Shown here: positions 4,329 to 23,028 of the stretch, piece by piece
How the letters are laid out: each line of letters begins with the position of its first letter
Numbering within the stretch: position 1 is the stretch's first letter
Origin: Fodinicola acaciae
GTDB taxonomy: Bacteria; Actinomycetota; Actinomycetes; Mycobacteriales; HKI-0501
Direction: 5' to 3'
Assembly: GCF_010993745.1 (NCBI RefSeq)
Contig: NZ_WOTN01000002.1
Coordinates: 1 to 64,000 of the forward strand
DNA length: 64,000 nt
Position numbers and translations under genes: made by a program
The notes under the pieces: model-generated
Database searches by the model: none
What the model was told of the DNA's origin: nothing
What the model saw: the letters and a program-made list of their open reading frames with translations, nothing else

Positions 4329-5978
4329 CTATCGGAGCCAGACGATCTCGACCAAGCTTGGGTCGAAGCGCCAGCCGTCGCTGTCCGGCCAAAGCTGGGC
4401 GCCGGGTCGACCGGGATGGATGATCACCTTGTCGACGACGAGCTTGATAACGCTCGCTCGCCATTCCAGGCTGGCCGAGGACCAGACGGTCGGCAGACCA
4501 CCATCGAACGGGATGGCGAGACGACGTACCTCGTCGGCAAGGAGGCGTTGCTCGTCAGCTTCGGCGACGATGATCTGGTCCTTGATCGACCGCAACATGA
4601 CCTGGTAGTCAGCCTTGTCGTGCTCGCCGGCGGCATACTCAGCTGCCAACTCCTGCCGGCGTAGGCGCAGATGTGCGAGGTGCCGTACCACGTCAGCCAT
4701 CTCCTCATCGCTGCCGGGCGGTGCCAAGGCTTCGGCGATGTGTGGAGAACTGAAGCGTTGCAATACCTGCTCGGTCACATAGGCTTCGACGGCATCGGCG
4801 ATGCGAAACACTGAGCAACAGCCAATGCGGCTGCCGTCGCCATCCCATTTCTTGCAGGCGTAGCGACGCTCGTATCGCTTCTGGCCAGCTTTGTTTGTGT
4901 GCGTCTTTCCTTGTCCGTACATTTGGCCACCACACGGCTGGCCGACCCGCTCGGTATCCCGCCAGGTACCACCACAGTAGACCGTGCCGCTGAGCAGGTA
5001 GGTCCGGCGCCGGATGTGGCCACTGTTCGACCAGTACTTGTCGCGACCGTTGAACACCGCGACCATGGCGCGGTGCTCGGCGACCGTAAATATGCCTGGC
5101 CATTTGGCGCGGTGGCGCTCGTTGTAGTGAATCCGCGTACCGCCAGATGGGTCATTGCGAAGGCATGGGCAGTCTGCGGGATGACCGGTGCGATCGAAGA
5201 TTATGTAGCTTTCGTTCAGCAGCGTACGTTTGAACTTGCCGACATCCCAGCGGCCGTCGCAGATTGACTCTTTGCCGCGGTATTTGGTTTTCTGGCCGGC
5301 CAGTGTTGTCTGGAGGCCGCGCTCGTTCCAATCTCTGACGATGGTGAATTGGCTGTCGCCGGCCAGTGTGCGGCGCTTGCCCTCCTGTAAGATGGCGACT
5401 TCCGCATCAACCTGCTGGTATGGATCGCGTACCTCTTTGCCGGTGGCTGGATCGTTGCCAATGACCTTGCCGTAGCCGTAGGTGCGACGGCCGCCCTTGG
5501 CCTTTCCTTCCCGCGCATCTTCCAGTTTCTTGCGTTTGACACGCTCCTGGATGTCTTCAGCCTCACCGGTGTCATTGACGGCGAGGCTGCGATACATGCG
5601 CCGTCCGGCTGCGGTCGTCAGGTCGCAGAATGGAGAAGCAACGTAGTGCGGGCTAATGCCGCTAATTCGAGCTTGGGTAATGACGCGCTCGGCTACTGTG
5701 TTATCGCGAGTAATGCGGCCGGTGGTGTAGGCCAGTGGAACTTCAAACTTTCCGGCTGCCCAGTCAGCCATAAAGTCTTCAAATTCGCGACGATCGGCAT
5801 TGGCAATGGTGCTCGCGCTGACGTCGTTTTCGATGTAGACCTTGTAGATCTTGGTTCCGAGTCGGTTGGAAAGGTGGCGACAATCATCTTCTTGACGGCC
5901 AACGCCAAAAGCGCGGCCCTCGCGGTCGTCACTGATCCGAACCAGAATTCCCGCTAGTTTGTCCTGAACATCCCACAT
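4329..5978 (-). CDS. Large serine recombinase (integrase)
   Basis: 549 residues. It catalyses site-specific integration and excision of the element through a covalent phosphoserine intermediate. The N-terminal resolvase domain begins GILVRISDD, with S16 as the likely nucleophile. A middle recombinase domain follows (YGYGKV..., LLNESYI). A cysteine-rich zinc-ribbon region is visible (YCGG, GQPCGG, YACKK, IGCC), then a coiled coil and C-terminal tail, the layout of phiC31-type integrases. I chose ATG 5978 because AAGGA lies about 10 bp upstream; the open frame continues upstream only through chromosomal pilus-gene sequence on the other strand. The gene abuts the disrupted DUF4244 gene, as expected for an integrase next to its att site. 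Confidence 0.9.
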   Translation of the reverse strand: MWDVQDKLAGILVRISDDREGRAFGVGRQEDDCRHLSNRLGTKIYKVYIENDVSASTIANADRREFEDFMADWAAGKFEVPLAYTTGRITRDNTVAERVITQARISGISPHYVASPFCDLTTAAGRRMYRSLAVNDTGEAEDIQERVKRKKLEDAREGKAKGGRRTYGYGKVIGNDPATGKEVRDPYQQVDAEVAILQEGKRRTLAGDSQFTIVRDWNERGLQTTLAGQKTKYRGKESICDGRWDVGKFKRTLLNESYIIFDRTGHPADCPCLRNDPSGGTRIHYNERHRAKWPGIFTVAEHRAMVAVFNGRDKYWSNSGHIRRRTYLLSGTVYCGGTWRDTERVGQPCGGQMYGQGKTHTNKAGQKRYERRYACKKWDGDGSRIGCCSVFRIADAVEAYVTEQVLQRFSSPHIAEALAPPGSDEEMADVVRHLAHLRLRRQELAAEYAAGEHDKADYQVMLRSIKDQIIVAEADEQRLLADEVRRLAIPFDGGLPTVWSSASLEWRASVIKLVVDKVIIHPGRPGAQLWPDSDGWRFDPSLVEIVWLR

Positions 5979-19756: not shown

Positions 19757-20290
19757 TCAGCAGGCTGTTGAGGTGCTGTAGATCAGCAGCGAGCTCAGCT
19801 TGTCGTTGTCCGCCGCGCCGACGACGGCGACCTTCGCGCCGGCACCCATGCAGCGGGACGTGCCGCCTTTGTTGTCGTCGTAGTACCAGCGCGCGTCCAG
19901 GCCGCGGCGGTTGTACCAGGAGGACATCTGGTCGTTGAAGCCGTACGTGTACATGTTGCGATAGCCGATGGTGTTGAACTGCAGCATCCGCTTGTTGTGG
20001 TCGTACGGTCCGGTGTTGTAGTTGTCCGTCTCGTAAAGGCAGACATAGCCGGGATCGCAGGCGGACAGGCCGTAGACCGCCGGCGAGAGGATCACCGAGC
20101 CGTTGTCCCAGACGACCCGCTGGCCGTCGACCTTCCAGCCGGGAGCGAGCGTCGCTGGATTGATGCCGTGTGCGGCGAGGAATGACTCGCCGGCCGGGGC
20201 GGCGGCAGCCGCCGGTGTGGCCGTCGTGCTCAGCGCCGCGGTCAGCGCGAGCGCTCCGGCCAGCGCGGCCGCGAGGTGTCGCATCCGCAT
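19757..20290 (-). CDS. Secreted peptidase-inhibitor I36 / crystallin-like protein
   Basis: 177 residues. A strong ribosome-binding site (GGGAGGA) precedes ATG 20290, followed by a typical signal peptide (to about residue 31, TATPAAAAAP). The mature protein contains CDPGYVCLYETDNYNTGP, the motif of the peptidase-inhibitor I36 / beta-gamma-crystallin fold family found in secreted actinobacterial proteins, and two more cysteines (SRCMGAG and the terminal TAC) consistent with two disulfides. Family members inhibit metalloproteases, but activity cannot be judged from sequence. Monocistronic. Confidence 0.75.
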   Translation of the reverse strand: MRMRHLAAALAGALALTAALSTTATPAAAAAPAGESFLAAHGINPATLAPGWKVDGQRVVWDNGSVILSPAVYGLSACDPGYVCLYETDNYNTGPYDHNKRMLQFNTIGYRNMYTYGFNDQMSSWYNRRGLDARWYYDDNKGGTSRCMGAGAKVAVVGAADNDKLSSLLIYSTSTAC

Positions 20291-20386
20291 GGTTCCTCCC
20301 TCGAATTCACCGGCGCCTCCGCGGCGCCGGCCCGCAGACACGATGGCCGGCGGCGCTATGCGGTGACTAACCTCGCGCTAACCGGC

Positions 20387-22099
20387 TCAGCGCTGCCAGG
20401 CGTAGCGGCCCGGTGCGTCGGCGAGTACGCGGTGGTTGTGGTTGCCGACGGTCGGTGGCCGGCGGAGTTTTCCGGAGCGTGCGCTCAGCCAGTTTGTCCA
20501 GTCAGGCCACCAACTGCCGGGTGTCTCCTGCGCGCCGGCAAACCACTGGTCCGGCGGTGTCGCGTACGGCCCGTCGCCGGACAGGAAGCTGTCGCAGGCG
20601 AGCAGGCTGCGTACGCGGCCACCGGAGGCGAGGACGAAGCGGGTCGGTCCAGGCAGCAGGCGCAGGCTGGCATAAGCCGACCGCCACGGTGCCAGCTGGT
20701 CCGCCTGACCGGCGACGACGTACGCGGCGGCGCGGATCGACGACGGCGTGACCGCGCGGCCGGCCAGCGCCAGCGTGCCGTCGGCAAACCTGTTGTTCAG
20801 ATAGAAAGTCCGCAGATACGAGGCCAGTGCGGCGGCCGGCACGCGTACGGTGTCGCCGTTCCAGGTCATCACGTCCGAGGCCGGCGGTTCGCGGCCGAGC
20901 ATCCAGTCGTTGACCAGGAAACGCCACCGCAGCGGGTCGGCGCGTACGGCGTCGAAGAAGGCCGCGATGGTGGCGCCCGGCACGAGCGCGCGCTCGGGCA
21001 GCCGGTCCAGCCGCTCCAGCGCCTCCTCGACCGCCAGGCCGACCGGCCCGGGCTCGGAAAAGTCCAGCAACGACCCCAAAAGCGTCAGCGACGAGACACC
21101 GGAGTCGGCGGCGACCGCGGCCAGAGTGCCACCCATGCCAAAGCCGGTCACGTTGACCAGCGGCGAGCCGGTGATGTCACGTATCGCCGCCAACGCCGGC
21201 CGGATGCTCTCGGTGAGATAGTCGTCGAGCGTGATCGAACCGATCGACTCGTCCGGATTTCGATAGCTGATCGCGAAACTCGTGTGTCCACTGTGGACGG
21301 TCCAGTCGACCAGGCTGCGGCCGGGCGCCAGGTCGAGAAGGTAGTACTTGTTGATCCACGGCGGCACGAAGAGCATCGGCGTCGCGTACGTTTTCGGGGT
21401 CCGCGGCTCGTACTGGATGAGCTCGCACAGCCGGTCGCGGAAGACCACGCCGCCCTTGGTCGTCGCCAGGTCCTGGCCGAGGGTGTACGCGCCGTGGTTG
21501 ACCTGCAGCGGCCGGCCGGCGTTGGACACCAGGTCGCGGACCAGGTTGCGGCCACCGCGTACGACGCTGGCGCCGCCGGTGTCGAAGGCCTCCTTCACCG
21601 CGGTCGGGTTGCTGGCGGGAAAATTCGACGGCGCGATCGCGTGTGCGATCTGCTCGACCGCCAGCGTCGCCTTGGCGCGGCTGTCGTCGTCGAGCTCGGC
21701 TTCCAGCACGAGCTGGCGCAGGTGCCGCACGAACGCGGCATGTTGTTGAGCCCAGTGGAAATACCAGGCGTTGTGCAGCCAGGCCGGATCGGTGAACCGC
21801 GGATCGGTGCGGTCGAACTCGATCTCGTCGTCGATTTCCAACCCGGCGCCACGCAATGCCGCGATCAGCGTCAGCCGTACGCTGTCGGCCGCGGTTTCGG
21901 TGGCGATCCGGTTGAACAGCCCGGGATCGCGGCCGAGCGCGCGAGCCAGCTCGGCCAGCCCTTCGCGCAGGCCGGCCGGGTCGATCCGGCTGGACAGCTC
22001 GCTGGCGGCCACCGCGTCGGCGGCGAGCACCGGCAGCGACACCACCGTGCGTACGGCGACGTCGACCACGCTGCGCAGGCTGAATGCCACGATCGGCAC
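20387..22099 (-). CDS. PHA synthase (PhaC)-like protein lacking the catalytic Cys and His
   Basis: 570 residues, GTG start at 22099 preceded by AAGGA (start could also be GTG 22090). It aligns along its length with polyhydroxyalkanoate synthases: TPMLFVPPWINKYYLLDL, GHTSFAISYRNPDES, DDYL, LDFSEPG, MTWNGD, YLNN. However, the lipase-like box GFCxGG reads GFGMGG, so the nucleophilic cysteine is Gly (about residue 321). The Asp of the EDHIVPW-type motif is kept (QADQLAPW, about 467). The last catalytic His (SGHI) is Arg (GGRV, about 495). Thus the polymerisation triad is broken. No phaA, phaB or phasin genes are near. It may bind PHA or CoA esters or have an unrelated role. Confidence 0.8.
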   Translation of the reverse strand: MPIVAFSLRSVVDVAVRTVVSLPVLAADAVAASELSSRIDPAGLREGLAELARALGRDPGLFNRIATETAADSVRLTLIAALRGAGLEIDDEIEFDRTDPRFTDPAWLHNAWYFHWAQQHAAFVRHLRQLVLEAELDDDSRAKATLAVEQIAHAIAPSNFPASNPTAVKEAFDTGGASVVRGGRNLVRDLVSNAGRPLQVNHGAYTLGQDLATTKGGVVFRDRLCELIQYEPRTPKTYATPMLFVPPWINKYYLLDLAPGRSLVDWTVHSGHTSFAISYRNPDESIGSITLDDYLTESIRPALAAIRDITGSPLVNVTGFGMGGTLAAVAADSGVSSLTLLGSLLDFSEPGPVGLAVEEALERLDRLPERALVPGATIAAFFDAVRADPLRWRFLVNDWMLGREPPASDVMTWNGDTVRVPAAALASYLRTFYLNNRFADGTLALAGRAVTPSSIRAAAYVVAGQADQLAPWRSAYASLRLLPGPTRFVLASGGRVRSLLACDSFLSGDGPYATPPDQWFAGAQETPGSWWPDWTNWLSARSGKLRRPPTVGNHNHRVLADAPGRYAWQR

Positions 22100-22227: not shown

Positions 22228-23028
22228 ATGCGCGGGCACGGCACCGAGAACGACCTGGAACAGACCTTCCGGCCCAAAGGCGACCGGATCGAGCGCGACG
22301 AACCGGCTGGGGAACTGGCTGAGAGCCCGGCACTGATGGGGAAGGCCGCGGCGGCCGGACGCACCGACGTCCTCGGCGCCGCCGGCATGCTCGGCCTGCA
22401 GCGCGCGGTCGGCAACGCGGCCGCCGGCACGCTGATGGAGGAGGAGCGCTCCCCCGTACACGACGTGGTGAACTCCGGCGGCGGCTCGGCGCTGGACGAC
22501 GACACGCGCGCCGACATGGAGTCGCGGATTGGCGCCGACTTCGGCGACGTGCGCGTGCACACCGACAGCGCGGCGCACGAGTCCGCGCAGTCGGTCAACG
22601 CGCACGCGTACACGGTCGGCAACAACATCGTCTTCCAGCGCGACAAGTACGACCCGAGCTCGGACGCCGGCAAGCACATGCTGGCGCACGAGCTGACCCA
22701 CGTCGTGCAGCAGCGCAGCGGGCCGGTGGACGGCACCGACGCCGGCGGCGGCATCCAGGTCAGCGACCCGTCGGACCGGTTCGAGCGCGACGCGGTGGCC
22801 AACGCCGACCGCGTCATGTCGGCGCCGGCACCGGTGCAGACGGCCGCGGCCGGTGGCGCAGGCGCCGCCGTGCAGCGGTGCGGCGACGGCTCGGATCACG
22901 ACCACGGCGCCGAGGTGCAGACGTACGTCCAGCGCGACGAGGCTCCGGCGGAGGAGACCGAGGAGGACCCCACCGCGCAGACTTTCGTCCAGCGCGAGGG
23001 CGAGGAGGAAGAGGAAGCCGCCGAGTAG
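22228..23028 (+). CDS. DUF4157 (eCIS-core) domain protein with VQR repeat tail
   Basis: 266 residues; ATG 22228 follows GCAGGGAG. Residues about 95-170 form the DUF4157 domain: LDDDTRADMESRIGADFGDV, RVHTDSAAHESAQ, NAHAYTVGNNIVFQ, and AHELTHVVQQ, which includes an HExxH zinc-protease-like motif (HELTH). DUF4157 proteins are often cargo or accessory factors of extracellular contractile injection systems. The C-terminus has repeated VQR units (AAVQRCG, TYVQRDE, TFVQREG) in an acidic tail. No injection-system genes are in the window, so this is an orphan. No signal peptide. A strong terminator follows. Confidence 0.78.
   Translation: MRGHGTENDLEQTFRPKGDRIERDEPAGELAESPALMGKAAAAGRTDVLGAAGMLGLQRAVGNAAAGTLMEEERSPVHDVVNSGGGSALDDDTRADMESRIGADFGDVRVHTDSAAHESAQSVNAHAYTVGNNIVFQRDKYDPSSDAGKHMLAHELTHVVQQRSGPVDGTDAGGGIQVSDPSDRFERDAVANADRVMSAPAPVQTAAAGGAGAAVQRCGDGSDHDHGAEVQTYVQRDEAPAEETEEDPTAQTFVQREGEEEEEAAE

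What the first reader, a model, noticed from the sequence alone, without database searches (positions are those of the whole stretch)
20387..22099. PhaC-like protein with a broken catalytic triad
Full-length similarity to PHA synthases, but Cys is Gly (GFGMGG) and the final His is Arg (GGRV), while the Asp is kept. It has no PHA genes nearby. Conservation of the rest implies a retained non-polymerising role.
Basis: partly seen in the sequence, partly recalled or inferred. Interest (0 to 1): 0.62.

Follow-up and report, generated by a model that had tools for sequence, protein, structure and literature searches.

The report
Catalytically dead PHA synthase-like protein
A soil and plant-root bacterium (Fodinicola) keeps a protein built like the enzyme that makes bacterial bioplastic, but residues that do the chemistry have been replaced, so it probably does some other, non-polymerising job.

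Summary
Window 20387-22099 (-) encodes a 570-aa class I-type PHA synthase homologue, in what is most likely Fodinicola acaciae: Cys319 is Gly, His508 is Arg, Asp480 is kept (C. necator numbers). All 144 distinct relatives counted (400 or more residues aligned) have Cys, Asp and His. The one close relative found, in F. feengrottensis, sits in the same gene order and also has Gly, but keeps His. So Gly is shared by both species and Arg is particular to the window. Both also share D401P, F420S, L423M, H481Q and loss of P515. A long stem (1.07) precedes two short tips (0.24, 0.19); pairwise dN/dS is 0.30, within the range of five neighbours; the window tip is not detectably faster. A selected pseudoenzyme, probably a binding or regulatory module, fits better than a recent dead copy, but rests on two species. 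What it binds is unknown. It is the only PhaC_N protein in the genome. His-to-Arg is in print for one Paraburkholderia PhaC; two searches for Cys-to-Gly or pseudoenzyme PhaC gave no paper.

The parts
20387..22099 (-). PhaC-like pseudoenzyme gene, 570 aa from the GTG at 22099, stop included (frame open to 22333; start not proven)
   Evidence: ORF and homology; same position in F. feengrottensis
21302..21805 (-). PhaC_N domain; the only match to this family in the 8.86 Mb genome at E up to 0.001
   Evidence: PF07167 183.7 bits
21137..21139 (-). codon 321 (GGC, Gly) at the nucleophile column (C319); also GGC in F. feengrottensis
20933..20935 (-). codon 389 (Pro) at the LID Asp column (D401); Pro in both Fodinicola
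   Evidence: role of Asp368 of the Chromobacterium enzyme read as a passage of PMC5509742, correspondence mine
20876..20878 (-). codon 408 (Ser) at the dimer-interface Phe column (F420); Ser in both Fodinicola
20699..20701 (-). codon 467 (GAC), catalytic Asp kept
20696..20698 (-). codon 468 (CAG, Gln) at the H481 column, where 144 of 144 relatives have His; CAG in both Fodinicola
20615..20617 (-). codon 495 (CGC, Arg) at the catalytic His column; CAC (His) in F. feengrottensis
22228..23028 (+). divergent neighbour, eCIS_core protein (start chosen by me); adjacency kept in both Fodinicola; functional link not shown

Best explanation
It is a PHA-synthase pseudoenzyme maintained in Fodinicola. 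An ancestral class I-type PhaC lost its nucleophile (Cys to Gly), the His beside the catalytic Asp and several CAP/LID and dimer-interface residues on the stem of the genus, which is a long branch. The protein was then held under purifying selection. Without the thiol no acyl-cysteine can form, so it cannot start or extend a polyester chain (inferred from the established mechanism). The PPWINKYY stretch, the glycines of the nucleophile-elbow motif, the W425 column and the catalytic Asp are kept (shown); the fold is predicted to be kept. It most likely works as a binding or scaffolding module that uses the old acyl pocket under the CAP, or a surface, without covalent chemistry (inferred). The later His-to-Arg change in F. 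acaciae, without a detectable speeding-up of that tip, fits a role that never needed the base.
For: Gly at the nucleophile in both Fodinicola genes, Cys in 144 of 144 distinct relatives. Same gene order HPPase-AXE1-PhaC-eCIS-topA-tmk-holB in both species. Pairwise dN/dS 0.298, against 0.174-0.377 for five neighbours. Tajima relative-rate counts for window versus F. feengrottensis 33:34, 37:32, 31:25, 35:21 with four outgroups, p 1.0, 0.63, 0.50, 0.08. Stem 1.07 and tips 0.24/0.19, clade support 100 by SH-aLRT; from the fork with the sister group the window is at 1.31, sister rows L035-L038 at 0.40-0.47. Shared losses C321G, D389P, F408S, L411M, H468Q, P502C/A among 60 columns conserved at 95% or more: 6 of 6 lie within 10 residues of the triad or in the CAP (bounds mine), against 14 of 49 kept columns (p 0.0013; grouping chosen after seeing the data). 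AlphaFold model mean pLDDT 86.2; the 15 best Foldseek rows are PhaC, TM by target 0.83 to 5t6o and 0.84-0.86 to 5xav. No second PhaC_N protein, and no phasin (PF09361) or PHB_depo_C match over the curated cut-off, in the genome. All three triad residues are reported essential in the Chromobacterium enzyme (PMC5509742, passages).
Against: Only two species carry it. PhaC dN/dS is higher than that of four of five neighbours; residues 1-97 give 0.65 and 455-515 give 0.44. One of the four relative-rate counts leans to a faster window tip (35:21, p 0.08). Two of four residues reported near the CoA site, those matching H481 and H508, are lost in the window (PMC10215190 passage; mapping mine), which speaks against unchanged CoA binding. 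An intact-triad relative, L028, differs at 11 of the 60 columns, more than the window's nine, so such losses alone do not prove a new role. The Cys-intact Pseudonocardia dioxanivorans group is almost as far from the fork (1.07-1.13). The model is weakest in the CAP (blocks of 65-77 at 381-420) and its full length superposes poorly on A. caviae PhaC (TM 0.56-0.64, rmsd 15-19). No partner or ligand was identified.
Confidence: 0.6

Rival explanations
1. Slowly decaying relic: function was lost on the Fodinicola stem and the gene is on its way out; the His-to-Arg change is further decay.
For: Second triad residue lost only in the window; dN/dS 0.44 at residues 455-515 and 0.65 at the N-terminus; no phasin or depolymerase match over cut-off in the genome; the F. 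feengrottensis copy lies in three frames.
Against: Overall dN/dS 0.30 at a protein distance of about 0.44 changes per site, and an intact frame in the window; the F. feengrottensis frameshifts are not informative because topA, the H+-pyrophosphatase, AXE1 and tmk are also split between frames in the same stretch and its genome is scored 74% complete.
Confidence: 0.2
2. Altered enzyme: the retained Asp, with other pocket residues, catalyses a non-covalent reaction (for example a lyase or hydrolytic step using activated water) on a hydroxyacyl-type substrate.
For: Catalytic Asp, the W425 column and the elbow glycines kept in both species; F. feengrottensis still has the Asp-His pair.
Against: The window has neither His508 nor His481; of 23 residues shared by the two Fodinicola and rare elsewhere, nine are of polar or charged type, and none stands at the nucleophile or final-His column. 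Distances in the pocket were not measured.
Confidence: 0.12
3. Partner subunit: it dimerises with another PhaC-type protein (the class III-like homologue at G000:C2:1454042-1455253, or in F. feengrottensis also the class I-type copy L003) and modulates it.
For: PhaC forms dimers (PMC5509742 passages); the class III-like homologue is 77% identical between the two species and reads Cys-Asp-His by eye.
Against: The residues matching F420 and H481, both at the published dimer interface, are changed in both species; the class III-like protein is only 28% identical, has no PhaC_N match and lies about 1.4 Mb away.
Confidence: 0.08

Closest known systems
Class I PHA synthase PhaC (C. necator 5t6o/5hz2, Chromobacterium 5xav/6k3c, A. 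caviae 9knj)
   Same: PhaC_N plus alpha/beta-hydrolase catalytic domain with CAP, nearly full-length alignment, model closest to these structures
   Different: No nucleophilic Cys, no catalytic His, no H481; LID Asp and interface Phe changed; below the TIGR01838 cut-off (414.7 of 622.65 bits)
PhaC copy of Paraburkholderia terrae DSM 17804T with Arg in place of the catalytic His (PMC8231600, passages)
   Same: Natural PhaC homologue with the same His-to-Arg change, outside the PhaC groups described there
   Different: The passage reports no Cys change; that strain has six phaC copies, whereas the window genome has one PhaC_N protein
Non-catalytic alpha/beta-hydrolase proteins such as neuroligins and the gibberellin receptor GID1 (recalled, from no call)
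   Same: Hydrolase fold kept for binding after loss of a triad residue (recalled)
   Different: Different subfamily, eukaryotic, known ligands or partners (recalled)
Sister Pseudonocardiales PhaC (L035, L036, L037)
   Same: Closest Cys-bearing group, 42-45% identity
   Different: Intact triad; beside an HTH regulator gene in 3 of 3, and near a DUF3141/PHB_depo_C hydrolase in 2 of 3 (in L036 one ORF at 5393-5815 next to it was not scanned)

Membership tests
Class I PHA synthase (PhaC) | PhaC_N domain and full-length PhaC architecture | tested here: met
   PF07167 180.4 bits against a cut-off of 23.7; residues 70-567 match TIGR01838 16-530 of 532
Class I PHA synthase (PhaC) | TIGR01838 score over the curated cut-off | tested here: not met
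   414.7 against 622.65 bits; the Cys-bearing sister L035 (matched stretch only, not its whole ORF) scores 608.3, also below
Class I PHA synthase (PhaC) | PhaC box G-X-C-X-G-G with nucleophilic Cys | tested here: not met
   GFGMGG in the window, GFGLGG in F. feengrottensis; 144 of 144 relatives have Cys
Class I PHA synthase (PhaC) | Cys-Asp-His catalytic triad | tested here: not met
   Only Asp kept in the window; Asp and His in F. feengrottensis
Class I PHA synthase (PhaC) | Eight universally conserved residues S260, C319, G322, D351, W425, D480, G507, H508 (list read as a passage of PMC11767486) | tested here: not met
   Window 6 of 8, F. feengrottensis 7 of 8 (numbers mapped by hand through)
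Class I PHA synthase (PhaC) | PHA pathway genes in the neighbourhood or genome | tested here: not met
   None among 38 other window ORFs. Genome: Phasin_2 22.8 of 24.9 bits; PHB_depo_C 23.9 of 27, on the class III-like homologue itself; TIGR01829 best 227.4 of 302.1. Thiolase, PhaJ and other phasin types were not searched genome-wide
Class I PHA synthase (PhaC) | Polymerising activity | not testable with these tools
   Expected absent from loss of the nucleophile
Pseudoenzyme of the PhaC family | Family fold kept, catalytic residues lost, loss shared by orthologues | tested here: met
   fold is predicted only; the shared loss is Cys (2 of 2), not His (1 of 2)
Pseudoenzyme of the PhaC family | Maintained by selection | tested here: inconclusive
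   dN/dS 0.298 and no significant tip-rate difference favour it, but there is one species pair only

The most novel reading that the evidence does not exclude
Fodinicola carries a naturally evolved PHA-synthase pseudoenzyme that has taken on a new, selected, non-polymerising role (an acyl or polyester-precursor sensor or scaffold); in F. acaciae it is the only PhaC_N protein. Nucleophile, His-pinning LID Asp and dimer interface were remodelled together on one branch.
Probability: 0.45. Interest if true: 0.6.

Novelty: new variant of a known kind. Interest (0 to 1): 0.4.

Why it matters
PHA synthases are treated as having an invariant Cys-Asp-His triad, and annotation by similarity would probably call this gene a synthase. 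A stable natural form without the nucleophile would show that the PhaC fold can serve outside polymer making, and would give a natural non-polymerising scaffold in which to study substrate entry and dimer opening. It also warns that counting phaC genes can overstate the number of PHA producers.

Tried and rejected
Recent inactive copy of an active PhaC beside it: rejected, as the genome has one PhaC_N protein and the orthologue in the same place already has Gly.

F. feengrottensis gene as a pseudogene: the gene lies in three frames, but conserved neighbours are split too, topA in four pieces; taken as assembly error, so neither for nor against.

Sequencing error as the source of Gly: unlikely, since both species have the codon GGC in a syntenic gene. 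The single-base His/Arg difference (CAC/CGC) cannot be excluded as an error in one genome; both genomes were sequenced with Illumina and PacBio (PMC7232338 passages).

Longer start: the 78 residues between 22333 and 22100 gave only a weak match in F. feengrottensis (51% over residues 2-42, E 0.002), beside the eCIS start; start left open.

Link with the eCIS_core neighbour: both genes present in the two Fodinicola genomes and both absent from the third family genome; n is 3, so no claim.

'PhaC + inactive + pseudoenzyme' and 'PhaC + PHA synthase + cysteine + replaced by glycine' gave no papers. One search listed one review, not read; one search held 43 papers of which 10 were listed, and I looked into two (passages). 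The library is open-access only.

Rows dropped: the holB row used the wrong frame and is not used. One search counted only matches at E up to 1e-20; it left out six matches under 400 residues (from five loci, L003 of F. feengrottensis among them), 13 duplicates, matches with a stop inside, and 16 loci named in the script (own gene, F. feengrottensis, class III-like copies, neighbour stretches). The tree used 62 of 132 aligned rows, residues 98 onward, without columns 321, 468 and 495.

Full report
What is there. The minus-strand frame ending at 20387 is open from 22333 (648 aa); from the GTG at 22099 it gives 570 residues, the form used here. It matches class I PHA synthase TIGR01838 with 414.7 bits over residues 70-567, below the curated cut-off of 622.65, and PhaC_N with 180.4 bits. 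All five distinct PDB sequences matched are PhaC. The genome has 4 contigs and 8.86 Mb, which agrees with Fodinicola acaciae GKU 173T as described in PMC7232338 (passages); the identification is mine.

Active site. Aligned with 144 distinct relatives of 400 or more matched residues, the window has Gly where 144 of 144 have Cys, Gln where 144 of 144 have His (the residue after the catalytic Asp), and Arg where 144 of 144 have the catalytic His; the catalytic Asp is kept. C. necator numbers were mapped by hand through the alignment to 5t6o. Of the eight residues listed as universal (PMC11767486, passages) the window keeps six and F. feengrottensis seven.

The orthologue. The only relative listed above 45-46% identity is in F. 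feengrottensis HKI 0501 (L057 and L145, about 70% over the gene). Gene order is the same: HPPase, AXE1, PhaC, eCIS_core, topA, tmk, holB; the window's I36 inhibitor gene has no match there. This orthologue has GFGLGG, D and H: Gly is shared, Arg is not. It lies in three frames, but topA, HPPase, AXE1 and tmk are also split in that assembly, so this says nothing about the gene itself.

Selection. Between the species, Nei-Gojobori dN/dS with Jukes-Cantor correction is 0.298 for the gene; neighbours are HPPase 0.261, AXE1 0.209, eCIS 0.181, topA 0.174, tmk 0.377. By part: residues 1-97 0.648, 98-273 0.161, 274-400 0.288, 401-570 0.325, and 455-515 0.441. Relative-rate counts of window against F. 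feengrottensis are 33:34, 37:32, 31:25 and 35:21 with four outgroups, lowest p 0.08. So no clear speeding-up of the window lineage is seen after its loss of His, though one count leans that way.

Tree. In a tree of 62 rows made without columns 321, 468 and 495, the two Fodinicola proteins form a clade (SH-aLRT 100) on a stem of 1.07 changes per site with tips 0.24 and 0.19, next to Pseudonocardiales PhaCs (support 85, not starred). From that fork the window lies at 1.31, L035-L038 at 0.40-0.47, but the Cys-intact P. dioxanivorans group at 1.07-1.13, so rate alone is no proof of changed function.

Which residues changed. Among 60 columns conserved at 95% or more, six differ in both species: C321G, D389P, F408S, L411M, H468Q, P502C/A. 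Window only: G371A, H495R, V567A. F. feengrottensis only: D99N, D409Q. The median relative loses none; L028, with an intact triad, loses 11. All six shared changes fall within 10 residues of the triad or in the CAP, against 14 of 49 kept columns (p 0.0013, grouping chosen afterwards; triad proximity alone 3 of 6 against 5 of 49, p 0.034). In the Chromobacterium structure the residue matching D389 (Asp368) holds the helix carrying the catalytic His, and those matching F408 (Phe387) and H468 (His448) are at the dimer interface (PMC5509742, passages; correspondence by offset and alignment is mine). The same paper cites F420S in C. necator as raising activity, so that change alone is not inactivating.

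Fold. AlphaFold2 on a 47-row alignment gave mean pLDDT 86.2, with residues 1-33 below 50 and the CAP stretch 381-420 at 65-77. Foldseek ranks 15 PhaC chains first; TM by target length is 0.83 to 5t6o and 0.86 to 5xav_B, but only 0.62-0.64 to the full-length A. caviae chains, with rmsd of 15-19. A model built on intact relatives cannot by itself show that the altered protein folds.

Pathway context. PhaC_N occurs once in the genome. Phasin_2 (22.8 of 24.9 bits) and PHB_depo_C (23.9 of 27, on the class III-like homologue) stay below cut-off, and no acetoacetyl-CoA reductase model match reaches its cut-off (best 227.4 of 302.1). That distant class III-like homologue, at C2:1454042-1455253, reads Cys-Asp-His by eye and is 77% identical in F. 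feengrottensis. F. feengrottensis also has a class I-type PhaC with Cys, Asp and His (L003). Sister PhaCs lie beside an HTH regulator in 3 of 3 loci and near a DUF3141/PHB_depo_C hydrolase in 2 of 3; the Fodinicola gene does not.

Reading. Loss of the nucleophile rules out the accepted covalent mechanism (established knowledge; all triad residues reported essential). Sharing of Gly, synteny and constraint make a retained protein likely; the exact job is inference. Two of four residues described as near the CoA site (PMC10215190, passage) are lost in the window, so unchanged CoA binding should not be assumed.

Print. His-to-Arg has been reported for one of six phaC copies of Paraburkholderia terrae DSM 17804T (PMC8231600, passages). 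Two searches aimed at pseudoenzyme or Cys-to-Gly PhaC gave no paper, in an open-access library only.

Noticed in passing
window 22228-23028 (+): eCIS_core protein gene divergent from the PhaC-like gene; present with it in both Fodinicola genomes, and both absent from the third genome of the family.
   Followed up: partly
window 19757-20341 (-): Peptidase inhibitor family I36 protein between AXE1 and the PhaC-like gene, without a match in the F. feengrottensis stretch.
   Followed up: no
L145 / L057 (F. feengrottensis HKI 0501): topA, H+-pyrophosphatase, AXE1 and tmk are each split between frames within one stretch of the assembly, so gene-loss claims from it need care.
   Followed up: partly
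L146 1043-2257 (+), G000:C2:1454042-1455253: Class III-like PhaC homologue, 404 aa, below all PHA synthase cut-offs, with an AKK-rich C-terminal tail; 77% identical in F. feengrottensis.
   Followed up: partly
L028 (G276, same order): PhaC-like protein that keeps C, D and H but differs at 11 of 60 near-invariant columns, the most of the 144 relatives.
   Followed up: no
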